Part shown: positions 25,757 to 32,440 of the stretch, piece after piece
Layout of the letters: every line of letters starts with the position of its first letter
How positions within the stretch are numbered: the first letter of the stretch is position 1
Source: Bartonella callosciuri
Lineage (GTDB): Bacteria; Pseudomonadota; Alphaproteobacteria; Rhizobiales; Rhizobiaceae
NCBI RefSeq assembly: GCF_014203215.1
Contig: NZ_JACHIM010000005.1
Span: forward strand, 1-64,000
Reading direction: 5' to 3'
DNA: 64,000 nucleotides
The notes under the pieces: model-generated
Database searches by the model: none
What the model was told of the DNA's origin: nothing
What the model saw: only the letters and a program-made list of their open reading frames with translations
Made by a program: the position numbers and the translations under genes

Positions 25757-26476
25757 ATGACATTAGCACTTCAGTATAAACGTATTCTTTTAAAGGTTTC
25801 AGGCGAAGCTCTTATGGGGGGGCAGAGCTTTGGAATTGATGTTTCTGTTGCAGATCGTATTGCTGCTGATATTGCTGAAGTGCGAGAGATGGGCGTAGAA
25901 GTCGCTATTGTTATAGGTGGAGGCAATATTTTTCGTGGAGTTGCTGTTGCTTCCCGTGGTGGAGATCGTGTGACAGGTGATCATATGGGAATGCTTGCAA
26001 CAGCTATTAATTCTTTAGCATTGCGAACATCATTGACAAAATTAGGGGTTGAAACGGTTGTATTATCTGCGATTGCTATGCCACAAATTTGTGAAAGCTT
26101 TTCACAACGTAAAGCGATAGGTTATATGAATCAAGGAAAAGTCGTTATTTTTGCGGGCGGTACGGGAAATCCATTTTTTACCACAGACTCTGCCGCTACT
26201 TTACGTGCAGCAGAAATTGGTGCAGATGTTCTTCTTAAAGGAACACAAGTTGATGGTATTTATTCTGCAGATCCAAAGATAGACCCTATGGCTAAGCGGT
26301 TTGATCAATTGACACATGTCGAGATATTACAATGGGGGTTGTCTGTTATGGATACGACAGCGGTTACTTTAGCGCGCGAGAACAAGGTACCAATTATTGT
26401 GTATTCTATTCATGAAAAAGGTGGTTTAGCTAAGGTATTAAATGGAACGGGACGGTTTACAATAGTATCCGAATAG
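25757..26476 (+). CDS. pyrH: UMP kinase
   Basis: Phosphorylates UMP to UDP in pyrimidine nucleotide synthesis; a hexameric member of the amino acid kinase fold. The 239-residue product has [15 protein letters not shown] at the N-terminus (phosphate-binding Lys and Gly), [10 protein letters not shown] (about 52-61) and the uridine-site segment [28 protein letters not shown] (about 138-165). The frame is open from 25643, but ATG 25757 with GGGAGA (25745-25750) gives the family N-terminus. frr starts 37 bases downstream. Confidence 0.96.
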
Positions 26477-26513
26477 GGATAAGCTTTACGGCATAATTGA
26501 AGGAGGTAGAGAT

Positions 26514-27074
26514 ATGAGTGTTACATCGATTATGGATGATCTGAAACGTCGCATGGATGGCGCTATTTCCGCTTTTAAATGTGAATTAGGTGGTTTGCGG
26601 ACGGGACGAGCCTCTATCAGTTTATTAGAGCCGTTAACAGTGGAGGCTTATGGTTCTGTTGTACATATAAATCAGGTTGCGAATATTTCTGTTCCAGAAC
26701 CACGGATGCTTTCAGTCTCGGTATGGGATAAAACAATGGTAGGGGCTGTAGAGCGTGCTATTCGTGATTCTGGTCTTGGTTTGAATCCTATTACTGATGG
26801 TACGAATTTACGTATTCCTTTACCTGAATTAAATGAAGAGCGCCGTAAAGAATTAGTAAAAATTGCACATCAATATGCAGAGCAAGCCCGAGTTGCTACT
26901 CGCCATGTTCGCCGGGATGGTATGGATAATTTGAAAAAATTAGAAAAAGAAGGTGAGATTGGCCAAGACGAAGCACATAGTTTATCTGAGAAAGTCCAAA
27001 AACTCACGGATGAAGCCATTGCTGATATTGATAAAATTTTAGTTGTGAAAGAATCCGAAATTATGCATGTTTAA
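26514..27074 (+). CDS. frr: Ribosome recycling factor
   Basis: RRF splits post-termination ribosomes together with EF-G. The 186-residue protein is a standard tRNA-shaped RRF: helix [24 protein letters not shown] (about 25-48), domain II strands with [23 protein letters not shown] (about 102-124), and [22 protein letters not shown] (about 132-153). An AAGGAGG site precedes ATG 26514 at 8 bases. In most relatives the next gene is uppS; here that gene is a pseudogene. Confidence 0.97.
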
Positions 27075-27104
27075 GGCGATTTTATTGCTACAAAAAGAAC
27101 ATGA

Positions 27105-27750
27105 TATCGGCGTCGTATAACATCTTTTTATGGGTAAAAATCGGAAGAGATGTTTGCTGTTGATAACAGAATACGAGGGAAAAAGAGATGTATTTTACCG
27201 CGGCTTTCTATTTAAAGAAAGGATTAATTTAAAAAGATAGAGCCTTTTGAGTCTTTATTATTGCCCTTGTATAAGCTTGTTTGCTGGAACAAACTATTTT
27301 GCAGAATAATGAAAGATTTTTTCAACGTAGCTTTGTAAGGTTACATGATAAAAATCCTTTTATTATTGCGCATTATTTAAAGTATTCCACGGGAGATACT
27401 GAAAAAGGGATATTGAGAAAAAACTGATACCTTAATATTTAGAGAGATACAGTGGAATAGGTCCAACACACGGTTGTTATTTTGTGTTTTTGGTTTTCAA
27501 TGTTTTTTTAGTTTTTTGCGGGTGACTGATATTTTGATAGAACAATGTTTTTATGTGAAACGAATATCAGACCTAGACTTTAAGTTCACATGGGTAGTGA
27601 GCAGCAGCTTTCTCATTTTTAAGGTTAAGATTAATGTTTGGAAGTATATTTAAAAATTGATCTTGATACGTAGACTTTTGATCCATTTTTATTGATTATT
27701 GATCTTATAAGCACAGTCTTTGTGGATTGTGTCATTTGTGATAAATTGTA
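27105..27750 (+). pseudogene. uppS: Undecaprenyl diphosphate synthase pseudogene
   Basis: The 783-base gap between frr and cdsA is the size of a uppS gene and carries collinear scraps of it in shifting frames. About 27108-27145 aligns at the base level with the code for RHIAIFMDGNGR. The next in-frame piece reads KRCLLLITEYEGKRDV, like KRGLPRI.GY..GK.AV. CWNK (about 27281-27292) matches ENWKR. ERFFQRSFVRLHDKN (27311-27355) matches RRFIRRDLAELHxNN. NTRL (27465-27476) matches the HNTRLTL motif. ISDLD then GSEQQLSHF (27593-27619) match IPDPD..RTSGEQRLSNF, and YVDF (27667-27678) matches YWPDF. Spacings between most scraps fit the family, with a shortfall between NTRL and ISDLD. Stops and frameshifts make it non-functional. 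UppS supplies the lipid carrier for peptidoglycan, so another copy must exist elsewhere. Confidence 0.8.
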
Positions 27751-27857
27751 AAAAATATGCAAAAGTATGAATATAAAAAAATACTGTGTAGCAAAGTTCT
27801 TTGTTCGCACGAATTCCTAAGCTTGTATTTTCTGTTTTTATTATTTGGGATGTTGTT

Positions 27858-28676
27858 TTGTCTAATCTTATTTATCGTATTCTGACAGCTTTTGTTTTTG
27901 GCATTATTGCTTTGTGTTTCACATGGGTTGGGGGAACTTTCTTTTTTTTGTTTGTCTGGGTTATTGGTGGGTTTATTCTTTACGAATGGATTAGTATCAC
28001 TAAAGAGAAATGGCGTTTTTCACAAAAAATATTAGCGGGTATTTTTTATTTGGTTTTTGGCTCTTTGTTGATATCGAATGTATCTGCTTTATTAATCTTT
28101 TGTATTTTAGTAGCTTTGGCAGCATTGTTGGTTATTCTTGGGTCTGTAAAAAAGAATGGTTGGGTTTTTTTGGGTTTTTTATATACATCTTTCCCAGTTG
28201 TGGCTTTATCCTTTTTACGGGGCCATGAGACGATAGGATTCCAGGGTGTTATCTTCTTATTTACGATAGTGTGGGGAACAGATATTGCTGGATATTTTAG
28301 CGGACGTGCATTGGGTGGTCCTAAATTGGCACCACAGTTTTCTCCTAATAAAACTTGGGCAGGGGCAATTGGTGGTACGATTATTGGAGTTTTAGGTGGT
28401 ATATTGATCGCTCTTTGGGTTTTTGACATAAATTTAACCAGTTTTTTTGTGCTATTGCTTGCTCTTATTTTATCAATTATTTCGCAATTGAGTGATTTGG
28501 GGCAATCATGGTTAAAAAGACAGTTTTCTGTTAAAGATTCTAGTTCTTTATTGCCTGGACACGGCGGATTTATGGATCGTATGGATGGGTTGGTAGGGGC
28601 TGCTTTTCTGCTTTATTTAATTGGTTCATTTATGTCTGGTATGGATACACCTTTTAATCTTTTTTGTATGATTTAA
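27858..28676 (+). CDS. cdsA: Phosphatidate cytidylyltransferase
   Basis: Makes CDP-diacylglycerol from phosphatidate and CTP for phospholipid synthesis, in the inner membrane. The product is 272 residues from a TTG start (LSNLIYRILTAFVFG), with GGGA 7 bases upstream; the frame is open from about 27801 but that extension has no ribosome site. About seven or eight hydrophobic segments are visible. The CdsA signature is in the C-terminal third: SWLKRQFSVKDSSSLLPGHGGFMDRMD with the catalytic Lys, Asp and Asp residues. rseP begins about 15 bases downstream. Confidence 0.92.
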   Translation: MSNLIYRILTAFVFGIIALCFTWVGGTFFFLFVWVIGGFILYEWISITKEKWRFSQKILAGIFYLVFGSLLISNVSALLIFCILVALAALLVILGSVKKNGWVFLGFLYTSFPVVALSFLRGHETIGFQGVIFLFTIVWGTDIAGYFSGRALGGPKLAPQFSPNKTWAGAIGGTIIGVLGGILIALWVFDINLTSFFVLLLALILSIISQLSDLGQSWLKRQFSVKDSSSLLPGHGGFMDRMDGLVGAAFLLYLIGSFMSGMDTPFNLFCMI

Positions 28677-28691
28677 TTGGGAGAGGATATC

Positions 28692-29840
28692 TTGGATTTT
28701 TTGAATCATATAATCGTTGTGGGCGACTTGCTTTTAAGAAGTTTGAGCGTTCTTTTCGTCGTTATGATTATCATTTTTGTGCATGAAGCTGGGCATTATC
28801 TCATTGGGCGTTGGTGTGGTATTAAGGCGGCAGTTTTTTCGCTTGGGTTTGGACCACAAGTAGTGAGTTATATAGATAAGCATGGCACACAGTGGCGTTT
28901 AGCGCTTATTCCTTTGGGAGGGTATGTAAAGTTTATTGGCGATGAAGAAGATACGGTTGTACCATCATCTCAATCATTTCCGATTGTTGAAGGTTCATTT
29001 GCCAATGCACATACTTGGAAAAAAGCAGTAACTGTTTTTGCTGGTCCTTTATTCAATGTCCTTTTTACCATTGTTATTTTAACATTTTTTTTCTTTATTT
29101 ATGGTCGTATCGCCATTGAACCAATTGTTGGTTCTTTGGTAAAAGATTCTCCTGCTGTTCAGGCTGGTTTGGGGTTAGGTGATCGTTTTGTTGAAATGGA
29201 TGGTCGTCGGGTTGAAAGTTTTGAAGATTTAATGAATTATGTGACTTTTCATGGTGGAGATCCTATAGAATTTAAAATGGAACGTATGGGGCGGGTTTTT
29301 ACGACGGTGATTACACCAAAGGTGATTGAGCGAGATGATGGATTTGGTAATCGGGTTTTGAGTGGAGTGATAGGTGTAGGCGTCCCTGTTGATCGAGATA
29401 ATCCTATGCGTTTAGATCCGGCTTATGTAAAACATATTCGCTATGGTTTTGTTAGAGCTGTAAGAGAAGCGTCAGAACGTGCCACGTTTATTGCCACTCA
29501 AACAATTTTTTTTATGAGTCGTTTAATAAGAGGAAAAGAAGATCATTGTCGGCTCAGTGGTCCTTCTAAGACGATTAAGATTGCCTGGCAAATTAGCGAA
29601 ACAGGTTTTATCTCTTTGTTGAATTTTACAGCTTTTCTTTCAATTTGTGTTGGACTTATTAATCTTTTTCCAATTCCGCCGCTTGATGGTGGGCATTTAT
29701 TGTTTCATGTCGTTGAGGTCATTACTAGGAGACCCATATCAGCTAAAATTCGGGGAATTATTTTTCGCTTAGGTTTCTTCGTTGTTCTTCTATTTATATT
29801 TTTTGCGTTTTCTAATGATTATTTTTGTTGGTTTCGCTAA
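28692..29840 (+). CDS. rseP: RIP metalloprotease RseP (site-2 protease family)
   Basis: An inner-membrane zinc protease that cleaves substrates within the bilayer, including anti-sigma factors and signal peptides. The 382-residue product has the zinc motif H31-E-A-G-H35 in the first membrane helix, one readable PDZ domain (about 120-205, with VGSLVKDSPAVQAGLGLGD), and the third zinc ligand in NLFPIPPLDGGHLLF (about 326-340). The start is the TTG at 28692, preceded by GGGAGAGG at 5 bases; the TTG at 28677 overlaps that site and is rejected. It lies between cdsA and bamA, the standard order. Confidence 0.94.
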   Translation: MDFLNHIIVVGDLLLRSLSVLFVVMIIIFVHEAGHYLIGRWCGIKAAVFSLGFGPQVVSYIDKHGTQWRLALIPLGGYVKFIGDEEDTVVPSSQSFPIVEGSFANAHTWKKAVTVFAGPLFNVLFTIVILTFFFFIYGRIAIEPIVGSLVKDSPAVQAGLGLGDRFVEMDGRRVESFEDLMNYVTFHGGDPIEFKMERMGRVFTTVITPKVIERDDGFGNRVLSGVIGVGVPVDRDNPMRLDPAYVKHIRYGFVRAVREASERATFIATQTIFFMSRLIRGKEDHCRLSGPSKTIKIAWQISETGFISLLNFTAFLSICVGLINLFPIPPLDGGHLLFHVVEVITRRPISAKIRGIIFRLGFFVVLLFIFFAFSNDYFCWFR

Positions 29841-30043: not shown

Positions 30044-32440
30044 ATGACTACGAATTCAAATTTTTTTAATGCAGCATCTTTGTTGGCGTTGGGAATAGGA
30101 ATAATTACTCCAACAACAGCCTTTATGTCAATTGCAATGGTTGGAGAAGTACAAGCATCTGTGGTTCGTTCTATTGAGGTTCGGGGGAATAAATTTGTAA
30201 GTGCCCAGGCAGTTCGAGACAATATAAATATTAAAGCTGGACAGAGTTTTTCCATTGGTGATGTTGATACTGCGGTGAAGCGTCTTTTTGGATTAGGCTT
30301 ATTTTATGATGTGAAAATAAATCAGGTTAACGATAAGTTAGTTGTGCTTGTCAAGGAATATGAGGTAGTCAATCAGGTTTTATTTCAGGGAAATAAATCT
30401 ATTAAAGATCCTGATCTTAAAAGGTTTATTTCTTTAAAACCGAATGAGCCTTTCAACTCTGCTAAGCTCTCGGCGGATATTAGGATGATTCGTGAAGCTT
30501 ATAAAACTCTTGGTCGTAATAACGTTGCTGTTACAGTTCAAACCATTAACCTGGGGAAAGGACGCGTAAATGTAGTGTTTAATGTTGTTGAAGGTCGAAA
30601 GACAAAGATTCGTGATGTCGTTTTTAAGGGAAATCATGCTTTTGGAAGTCGCCGTTTGCGTGATGTAATTTCAACAAAGCCTTCGGGAATATTCTCATTG
30701 TTGTTGGGAGGCGATGTTTATACTGAGGAGCGTTTAGCTGCAGATGAAGAAGCTCTACGTCGCTTTTATTATAATCGTGGCTATGCAGATTTTCGTATTA
30801 TTTCCTCTAAAGCGACTTTTGATGAAGCAAGTAATACATATAAAATTTATTTTGTTCTTGATGAGGGCCCACGCTATAAAATTAGTGATATTCAGGTTGA
30901 AAGCAGCATTGATGGGGTTGATGTTCAATCTGTGAAAAAGATTCTTAAAACTCAGCCGGGTGACATTTATAGCGCAGAGAACATTGAACAATCTATTGCA
31001 ATTATCAATAATAAGGTTACTGATTCAGGGTATGCTTTTGCTAAAGTTGAACCACGGGGAAATCGTGATTTAGTAAATCATACAATTTCGATTTTATATA
31101 ACATTGAACAAGGTCCACGCGCTTATATTCAGCGTATTGAAATACGTGGCAATGAAAAGACACGTGATTATGTTATTCGCCGTGAGATTGATTTAAATGA
31201 AGGGGATGCTTACAATCAAACTCTCCTACAGCGGGCAAAGCGTCGTCTAGAAAGTTTAGGCTTTTTCAAAGCTGTTAATATTTCAATGGTTCCTACAGAT
31301 CAGTCTGATCAGGTTACCTTAGTTATAGATGTCGTTGAAGCTCCAACAGGAGATCTTTCTTTGTCTGGAGGATATACAACGGGTGGTACAAGCCCTGGTA
31401 TGTCACTTGAAGTGTCTGTTGCAGAACGTAATCTTGGAGGACGTGGTCAGTATGTTCGTTTAGGGTTAGGCGCTGGACAAGAAAAATCCCGCAATTACAA
31501 TTTTTCATTTGTTGATCCTTATTTTTTAGGTTACCGTTTATCTTCTGGTATTGATATTTTTCGCAGTACTTACCGTGCTGATAAAGCATATGATGTAAGA
31601 CAGACAGGGGGGATACTGCGGTTTGCGATGCCTATCAGTGATACATTATCTGCAAATGTTGCTTATTCTTATGTTCAGGAAGAATATGATTTTGGTAAAG
31701 AGTATGACTTAAACAAAGAGGCTGACATTAAGGAATTATATGGGAAATATTCTGGAGCAATCGTTCAGGCGGCAAAGCAAAGTCCTTGGAAGCGTTCATC
31801 TATTAGTTATGGTCTAACCTATAATACTATTGACGATATGAAGAATCCACATGATGGGTGGTATGTGCGTGTTCTTCAGGAATATGCAGGGCTTGGTGGG
31901 AGTGCAAAGTTCTTGAAGACAACTGGTAAAGCGATGATGTACAAGACGCTTTCTGAGCAGATGGATCTTGTTGGTTTATTTTCCTTTGGAGGTGGTTATA
32001 TCCACGAAATAGGTCGAGATGGTGTTCGTATCTTCGATATGTTTAAAGCAAGTTCTGATATGATCCGGGGATTCAAATATAATGGAATAGGTCCATTTCA
32101 GATTTCCAATAAAGGTGAAGTTTATTTCTTAGGGGGGACGACGTATATGAATGCGACTGCTGAAGTACAATTTCCTATATCTGTTTTTCCTGAGGGCTTA
32201 GGAATGCGCGGTGCTTTATTTGCGGATGTTGCAACGCTCTATGGCAATAATTATCGTCCTGTTTTTGAGGGGGAAGCGCCTGTTACGCATACCAAAAGTG
32301 CTTGGCGTTCGTCTGCAGGAGTGAGTTTGCTGTGGGATTCGCCATTTGGTCCACTGCGTTTTGATTATGCTTGGCCAATACAAAAGCAGGAAGGTGATCA
32401 TTTGCAGAAATTAAACTTTGGTATTTCTACGAAGTTCTGA
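30044..32440 (+). CDS. bamA: Outer membrane protein assembly factor BamA
   Basis: BamA is the essential Omp85 protein that inserts beta-barrels into the outer membrane. The 798-residue precursor has a signal peptide (about 1-38, ending near VQAS), five POTRA repeats (about 40-440; the first starts VVRSIEVRGNKFVSAQAVRDNI), and the C-terminal 16-strand barrel, with VRGF-type loop IRGFKYNGIGP (about 676-686) and a terminal Phe as required for assembly. Transcription continues into lpxD about 60 bases later, linking outer membrane protein and lipid A assembly. Confidence 0.96.
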   Translation: MTTNSNFFNAASLLALGIGIITPTTAFMSIAMVGEVQASVVRSIEVRGNKFVSAQAVRDNINIKAGQSFSIGDVDTAVKRLFGLGLFYDVKINQVNDKLVVLVKEYEVVNQVLFQGNKSIKDPDLKRFISLKPNEPFNSAKLSADIRMIREAYKTLGRNNVAVTVQTINLGKGRVNVVFNVVEGRKTKIRDVVFKGNHAFGSRRLRDVISTKPSGIFSLLLGGDVYTEERLAADEEALRRFYYNRGYADFRIISSKATFDEASNTYKIYFVLDEGPRYKISDIQVESSIDGVDVQSVKKILKTQPGDIYSAENIEQSIAIINNKVTDSGYAFAKVEPRGNRDLVNHTISILYNIEQGPRAYIQRIEIRGNEKTRDYVIRREIDLNEGDAYNQTLLQRAKRRLESLGFFKAVNISMVPTDQSDQVTLVIDVVEAPTGDLSLSGGYTTGGTSPGMSLEVSVAERNLGGRGQYVRLGLGAGQEKSRNYNFSFVDPYFLGYRLSSGIDIFRSTYRADKAYDVRQTGGILRFAMPISDTLSANVAYSYVQEEYDFGKEYDLNKEADIKELYGKYSGAIVQAAKQSPWKRSSISYGLTYNTIDDMKNPHDGWYVRVLQEYAGLGGSAKFLKTTGKAMMYKTLSEQMDLVGLFSFGGGYIHEIGRDGVRIFDMFKASSDMIRGFKYNGIGPFQISNKGEVYFLGGTTYMNATAEVQFPISVFPEGLGMRGALFADVATLYGNNYRPVFEGEAPVTHTKSAWRSSAGVSLLWDSPFGPLRFDYAWPIQKQEGDHLQKLNFGISTKF

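What the first reader, a model, noticed from the sequence alone, without database searches (positions are those of the whole stretch)
27105..27750. uppS is a pseudogene at its conserved place between frr and cdsA
Scraps of every conserved UppS block occur in order (DNGR, ENWKR, F..R..L..LH..N, HNTRL, PDPD, GEQRLSNF, YWPDF equivalents) but in different frames and broken by stops. UppS makes undecaprenyl diphosphate for peptidoglycan, so loss at the cluster means another prenyltransferase must supply it. A replaced or relocated uppS in this lineage would be an unusual change in an essential pathway.
Basis: partly seen in the sequence, partly recalled or inferred. Interest (0 to 1): 0.75.

Follow-up and report, generated by a model that had tools for sequence, protein, structure and literature searches.

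The report
Dead uppS gene across Bartonella
Most Bartonella genomes examined have lost the enzyme that makes the lipid carrier for bacterial cell-wall building, yet keep the cell-wall gene that uses that carrier, so they must get the carrier in some other way that is still to be identified.

Summary
The gap of about 785 bp between frr and cdsA in this Bartonella genome is a decayed uppS. The window's own motif scraps are barely above chance. A chained profile through less decayed relatives settles it: 97.7 bits for the window in round 3, against at most 6.2 in 975 shuffles. The loss is not peculiar to this genome. No cis-prenyltransferase (PF01255) is detected in it or in 56 of 71 Bartonella genomes (itself included), 11 of them single contigs. 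It is found in 391 of 396 sampled genomes of the order; the five without include all three Bartonella drawn. Two genomes nested among the UppS-less ones keep an intact uppS in place, and a single loss is rejected (AU p = 0.001), so uppS was probably lost more than once. MraY, which needs a polyprenyl-phosphate carrier, is in 70 of 71; a PAP2-family protein is in all 71. The only long-chain prenyl synthase found is one DdsA-type trans-synthase per genome. Best mechanism, inferred and not shown: all-trans decaprenyl phosphate from DdsA is the peptidoglycan carrier. Rivals are an unrecognised synthase and scavenging. I found no report of the loss in the papers searched.

The parts
26514..27074 (+). 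frr, ribosome recycling factor, intact upstream neighbour
   Evidence: ORF of 186 aa; TIGR00496 200 bits and PF01765 209 bits
27163..27725 (+). uppS remnant (pseudogene), detectable part; the whole frr-cdsA gap is 27075 to about 27857
   Evidence: chained DNA profile: no hit in round 1, 31.6 bits in round 2, 97.7 bits in round 3; shuffles at most 6.2 bits of 975; no long open frame
27801..28676 (+). cdsA, phosphatidate cytidylyltransferase, intact downstream neighbour (start codon uncertain; may begin near 27858)
   Evidence: ORF of 291 aa; PF01148 179 bits
28677..29840 (+). rseP-like site-2 protease, next gene of the conserved order
   Evidence: ORF of 387 aa, found at least in part in all 47 compared loci; name by my reading of the sequence
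30044..32440 (+). bamA, outer-membrane assembly protein, next gene of the conserved order
   Evidence: ORF of 798 aa, found in all 47 compared loci; name by my reading of the sequence

Best explanation
The reduced-genome Bartonella (mammal-associated, recalled) lost UppS at its ancestral frr-cdsA site, probably more than once, after their common ancestor no longer needed it. They still build peptidoglycan on a polyprenyl-phosphate carrier. The most likely source is the ubiquinone-tail enzyme: DdsA makes all-trans decaprenyl diphosphate from IspA's farnesyl diphosphate, the PAP2 phosphatase of about 200 aa removes one phosphate, and MraY and MurG load the resulting all-trans C50 phosphate. Shown here: the pseudogene, the absence of any detectable PF01255 enzyme, retention of IspA, DdsA, PAP2 and MraY, and rejection of a single loss on one 19-taxon data set. 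Inferred: that DdsA's product is the carrier and that MraY accepts it. MurG was not searched for.
For: No PF01255 in the window genome or in 56 of 71 Bartonella genomes, that genome included; controls ring in 14 of 14. MraY family PF00953 in 70 of 71 and PAP2 in 71 of 71; the window genome's PAP2 is closest to undecaprenyl-diphosphate phosphatase models, though below their cut-offs. Two full-length PF00348 enzymes in every genome, 71 of 71: one FPP-synthase-like, one closest to solved octaprenyl and decaprenyl synthases, 4jxn and 3mzv. UppS-bearing F02 and G006 nest among UppS-less species; monophyly of the UppS-less ones is rejected, AU p = 0.001, which suggests the bypass predates the losses and uses something the ancestor had. 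No DgkA-type kinase match in any of the 56 (the family rings in 8 of 14 controls), which weighs against salvage of free polyprenol through such a kinase. A review reports that peptidoglycan enzymes accept carriers such as geranyl, farnesyl and geranylgeranyl in vitro (PMC12560707, passages read).
Against: No direct evidence of an all-trans carrier anywhere. DdsA and IspA show no change at the chain-length motifs. MraY has only 2 fixed differences over 356 columns between 6 bee/tamiae-type genomes and the 33 others (the 33 include the UppS-bearing G006 and G046), so nothing marks a change of carrier. UppS-bearing relatives have the same two synthases, so DdsA alone does not explain why they keep UppS. 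In-vitro tolerance of short trans carriers does not show that a C50 all-trans carrier sustains growth. With six proteins and 47 loci the single-loss tree was not rejected (AU p = 0.083).
Confidence: 0.48

Rival explanations
1. An unrecognised, non-homologous enzyme makes a poly-cis polyprenyl diphosphate and replaced UppS.
For: MraY is nearly unchanged, as expected if the carrier is still the usual one. Several losses fit an ancestral gain of a replacement. A gene-content comparison of UppS-less and UppS-bearing genomes was not done.
Against: I know of no poly-cis long-chain synthase outside PF01255 (recalled), and that family is not detected while the 14 control genomes, archaea included, all ring. 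No extra full-length PF00348 protein.
Confidence: 0.22
2. The carrier is scavenged: polyprenyl or dolichyl phosphate, or the free alcohol, is taken from host cells or from medium.
For: These are host-associated bacteria (recalled); Rickettsia parkeri scavenges host isoprenoids that feed its own bactoprenol synthesis (PMC6854040, passages read).
Against: No DgkA-type kinase match in any UppS-less genome, so a free alcohol would need another kinase. Bartonella can be grown without host cells (recalled; axenic culture of B. quintana is also stated in the start of the abstract of PMC11983613, search listing). IspA and DdsA are retained.
Confidence: 0.15
3. A short trans carrier (C15 or C20 phosphate from IspA) is used instead of a long one.
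For: A review reports geranylgeranyl lipid II as an effective transglycosylase substrate in vitro (PMC12560707, passages read).
Against: IspA motifs do not differ between groups and the protein scores over the cut-off of an FPP-synthase model; carrier function in vivo needs flipping and recycling.
Confidence: 0.06
4. The gap is ordinary intergenic DNA, or UppS is present but missed (assembly gap, error or extreme divergence).
For: The direct match of the window to UppS is weak.
Against: Chained profile; the gap also lacks an open frame in 38 named relatives; 11 single-contig genomes without PF01255; nothing at E <= 10 with an intact Bartonella UppS (no positive control in that call).
Confidence: 0.03

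Closest known systems
UppS / cis-prenyltransferase (PF01255, TIGR00055), frr-uppS-cdsA gene order
   Same: Remnant lies at the conserved place and is colinear with uppS by chained profile; F02 and G006 hold an intact copy there.
   Different: No long open frame in the gap and no copy detected elsewhere in the genome.
Mycobacterial decaprenyl-phosphate carriers
   Same: A review says uppS is absent in mycobacteria and that shorter carriers can be used there (PMC5814848, passages read).
   Different: Mycobacteria still use PF01255-family enzymes for their carrier (recalled); in UppS-less Bartonella none is detected.
Rickettsia, host-isoprenoid scavenging
   Same: Host-associated alphaproteobacterium with a hole in the isoprenoid-to-carrier pathway (PMC6854040, passages read).
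   Different: Rickettsia lacks upstream steps, FPP synthase among them, while its C55 products and UppS are discussed as its own; Bartonella keeps IspA and DdsA and lacks UppS.
DdsA / IspB long-chain trans-prenyl diphosphate synthases (ubiquinone tail)
   Same: One per genome; the window genome's is closest to solved octaprenyl and decaprenyl diphosphate synthases.
   Different: Not known, to my recollection, to supply a peptidoglycan carrier in any bacterium.

Membership tests
UppS (PF01255) functional gene | open reading frame of about 240 aa | tested here: not met
   longest stop-to-stop frame in the gap is 78 aa
UppS (PF01255) functional gene | profile match in the genome | tested here: not met
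   0 matches at E <= 0.001; the tool reads through stops
uppS pseudogene | homology to uppS DNA beyond chance | tested here: met
   31.6 then 97.7 bits through intermediates, shuffles at most 6.2 bits of 975; direct match alone is weak or absent
uppS pseudogene | ancestral position between frr and cdsA | tested here: met
   same place as intact uppS in 12 loci and L075
DdsA-type long-chain trans synthase (the second PF00348 protein, outside the window) | DDxxD motif with small residues just upstream | tested here: met
   HTATLLHDDV in 40 of 40 sequences taken; the meaning of the residues is recalled
DdsA-type long-chain trans synthase (the second PF00348 protein, outside the window) | product is all-trans C50 and reaches MraY | not testable with these tools
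   needs enzyme assay and lipid mass spectrometry
PAP2-type polyprenyl diphosphate phosphatase (outside the window) | PAP2 domain and curated undecaprenyl-diphosphatase model | tested here: inconclusive
   PF01569 62.6 bits, over cut-off; best NCBIfam model 107.3 bits against a cut-off of 229

The most novel reading that the evidence does not exclude
Most Bartonella build peptidoglycan on an all-trans C50 carrier made by the ubiquinone-tail synthase, so one trans-prenyl pool serves both respiration and the cell wall, and the dedicated cis-prenyltransferase is dispensable. It would be the first natural bacterial lineage known to me that makes peptidoglycan without any PF01255 enzyme.
Probability: 0.42. 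Interest if true: 0.87.

Novelty: new variant of a known kind. Interest (0 to 1): 0.72.

Why it matters
UppS is treated as an essential antibacterial target and poly-cis undecaprenyl phosphate as the near-universal carrier of bacterial cell walls. A clade in which 55 genomes (one per species, by the tool's description) lack it while keeping MraY would mean that the cis geometry, or the dedicated enzyme, is not strictly required. It gives a natural experiment: intact uppS in bee-type, F02 and G006 genomes, decayed copies in sister lineages, and a direct lipid measurement that separates the explanations. It also bears on drug-target lists for Bartonella that assume the standard pathway.

Tried and rejected
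Direct profile and protein searches of the window for UppS: too weak alone (round 1). Six-protein tree: a single loss not rejected, AU p = 0.083; the larger 8117-column alignment of 19 taxa rejected it. A weak second PF00953 match (below cut-off) near the PAP2 gene looked like a linked glycosyltransferase. It is a 326-aa protein, hydrophobic by my reading, next to an ORF that I read as ribosomal protein L9, with no Pfam or NCBIfam match; a similar ORF stands at the same place in the UppS-bearing F02, G006 and G003, so I dropped it. Chain-length motifs and MraY fixed differences gave no signal. No Rfam match in 26400-28700 at E <= 1. UppS on plasmids: 119 records match, all under 60% identity; Bartonella is not among the ten organism names shown, 30 further names were not shown. 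BacA as a marker: present in only 1 of 71, so not informative about UppS loss.

Full report
WHAT IS THERE. The window carries the order pyrH - frr - gap - cdsA - rseP - bamA (rseP and bamA named by my reading). The best named relatives of its cdsA are Bartonella. No ORF of 60 aa or more lies wholly between frr and cdsA. In 12 Bartonella loci with an intact uppS, and in the named locus of Bartonella sp. F02 (L075, the same genome as L008), the gap holds uppS: 820-843 bp, stop-free frame 243-254 aa. In the window and in 38 other named Bartonella loci the gap is 432-1144 bp and the longest stop-to-stop frame, in six frames, is at most 94 aa.

IS IT REALLY UPPS. From the window alone the answer would be uncertain. 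A DNA profile built from 12 intact uppS genes hit 10 of 39 decayed gaps but not the window (1 of 975 shuffles at 1.0 bit, 0 of 39 reversed), and round 1 of a 13-gene profile missed it too. A frameshift-tolerant alignment to the F02 UppS scored 48 against a mean of 30.4, sd 3.6 and maximum 45 in 100 dinucleotide shuffles. Two other references scored 35 and 31 and were not significant; decoys scored 40 (reversed UppS), 31 and 25. Other species hold better-preserved remnants: 156, 132 and 129 bits for L067 (Bartonella sp. A05), L064 (B. melophagi) and L061 (Bartonella sp. WD12.1) in round 1. When remnants accepted above all shuffles were added in steps, with the window never added, the window scored 31.6 bits (E 4.5e-9, model 473-570) in round 2 and 97.7 bits in round 3, over model positions 80-687. 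In round 3, 39 of 39 gaps gave a hit, 36 over the acceptance threshold, and 39 were accepted in round 4. The best of 975 shuffles in any of the five rounds was 6.2 bits. Gap position 1 is window 27072, so the detectable remnant (round 5) is about 27163-27725. Iterated profiles can drift, so rounds 2 and 3 carry the argument.

HOW WIDE IS THE LOSS. PF01255 has no match in the window genome, which is 1.74 Mb in 36 contigs and 100% complete. An intact Bartonella UppS finds nothing in it at E <= 10, though that call had no positive control. In the genus, 15 of 71 genomes have a match; controls ring in 14 of 14. In one of the 13, G013, the gene is split over two frames. Of the 56 without, 11 are single-contig assemblies. 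One of the 56, G062 (85% complete), is probably only incomplete: it also lacks a PF00953 match and has the bee-type DdsA motif, so I count 55 real losses. In the order, with completeness of at least 95% asked for, 391 of 396 genomes have PF01255. The five without are the three Bartonella drawn, the window genome among them, and two drafts at 95% completeness.

MORE THAN ONE LOSS. A tree of six proteins from 47 loci nests F02 and G006 among UppS-less lineages (several of the nodes there are weakly supported), but did not reject a single loss (AU p = 0.083; the split gene of G013 was counted as UppS-bearing). With 8117 columns from 19 taxa, A05 (UppS-less) is sister to F02 (UppS-bearing) with local support 0.999, and monophyly of the UppS-less taxa is rejected: delta lnL 73.5, AU p = 0.001. 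Two placements of the outgroup are not distinguished (AU 0.65 and 0.36). I count at least two losses, three on the best tree, assuming no regain. Limits: the constrained tree came from a fast search, the best tree from a run that hit the time limit, and the genes all lie in one region. The remnants also differ in decay. F02 and G006 UppS are identical at 196 of 239 positions to each other and at 154 and 148 to a bee-type one, as vertical descent would give.

WHAT REMAINS OF THE PATHWAY. The MraY family PF00953, whose MraY member puts the peptidoglycan precursor on polyprenyl phosphate, is in 70 of 71 genomes; the exception is G062, and in G038 the match is partial. BacA is in 1 of 71, so it is missing in UppS-bearing genomes too. 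PAP2 is found in 71 of 71, with one protein of about 200 aa in each; in the window genome it matches PF01569 and, below cut-off, undecaprenyl-diphosphate phosphatase models. A second PAP2 match is seen in 14 genomes, the 13 bee/tamiae-type ones and G062. A DgkA-type kinase (PF01219; 13 of 71, 12 over cut-off; 8 of 14 controls ring) is seen only in the 13 bee/tamiae-type genomes, in G063 below cut-off, and in none of the 56 UppS-less genomes nor in F02 or G006. PF00348 gives two full-length proteins in every genome, and extra fragments in three. One is FPP-synthase-like. The other is closest to solved octaprenyl and decaprenyl diphosphate synthases. Their motifs do not differ between UppS-bearing and UppS-less genomes (21 IspA and 40 DdsA sequences). 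MraY shows 2 fixed differences over 356 columns between 6 outgroup sequences and 33 others, which include G006 and G046, against 6 of 300 for IspA and 3 of 338 for DdsA (39 of 40 MraY loci parsed).

HOW IT MOST LIKELY WORKS. A lineage that keeps MraY and a likely carrier phosphatase presumably makes peptidoglycan and must have a polyprenyl phosphate. The only long-chain synthase found is DdsA. Repeated loss suggests that the bypass existed before the losses, and DdsA was there. A review states that MraY, MurG and transglycosylases were used in vitro with carriers such as geranyl, farnesyl and geranylgeranyl (PMC12560707, passages read), so trans geometry is not a bar in principle. I therefore put all-trans decaprenyl phosphate first, at about 0.48. 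An unknown synthase (0.22) and scavenging (0.15) remain. The near-absence of change in MraY is neutral or slightly against a changed carrier. One paper lists mraY among genes with convergent, positively selected changes in B. bacilliformis (PMC4864206, passage read), whose named locus here has only a remnant (L076); this is suggestive only.

WHAT IS KNOWN. No paper in the library holds Bartonella, undecaprenyl and uppS together. Nine hold Bartonella and undecaprenyl. I read passages of two of them: one discusses UppP and lists MurG in B. bacilliformis as drug targets (PMC7416641), the other names MurG of B. henselae (PMC11118080); neither passage notes a missing UppS. The other seven I saw in the listing only. 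A metabolic model of B. quintana has no occurrence of undecaprenyl or prenyl in its main text (PMC11983613, term search). A review of peptidoglycan in obligate intracellular bacteria says uppS is in almost all peptidoglycan-positive genomes studied except mycobacteria; the word Bartonella does not occur in its main text (PMC5814848, passages read). A paper on ant symbionts of the family reports a complete set of peptidoglycan genes in them (PMC6044324, passage read). Further searches showed nothing on this loss in their listings and abstract starts. Most subscription papers are not held, so the absence from print is not certain.

Noticed in passing
L126:4183-4910: In the single-contig 2.9-Mb genome G013, uppS is split over two overlapping frames (83 and 177 aa open frames): a recent break in a bee-type genome or a sequencing error.
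   Followed up: partly
L181, L182, L183 (genomes G022, G001, G050): Partial PF00348 matches lie shortly downstream of the full ispA, as if it had been duplicated in part.
   Followed up: no
L044 (genome G063): The only BacA-type phosphatase match in 71 Bartonella genomes.
   Followed up: no
L072 gap between frr and cdsA: B. rattimassiliensis has a gap of 1144 bp, longer than any other; the matched uppS remnant starts only at about position 653, so DNA was probably inserted.
   Followed up: no
L073, L082, L083: The best cdsA alignment covers only part of the protein in these three draft loci, possibly assembly errors or frameshifts.
   Followed up: no
genomes G189 and G425 of the order: Two non-Bartonella draft genomes at 95% completeness show no PF01255 match; incompleteness not excluded.
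   Followed up: no
frr-cdsA gap in the UppS-less loci: The gap is still 432-831 bp long in 38 of 39 (window included; L072 is longer); whether it keeps a promoter or leader for cdsA is open.
   Followed up: no
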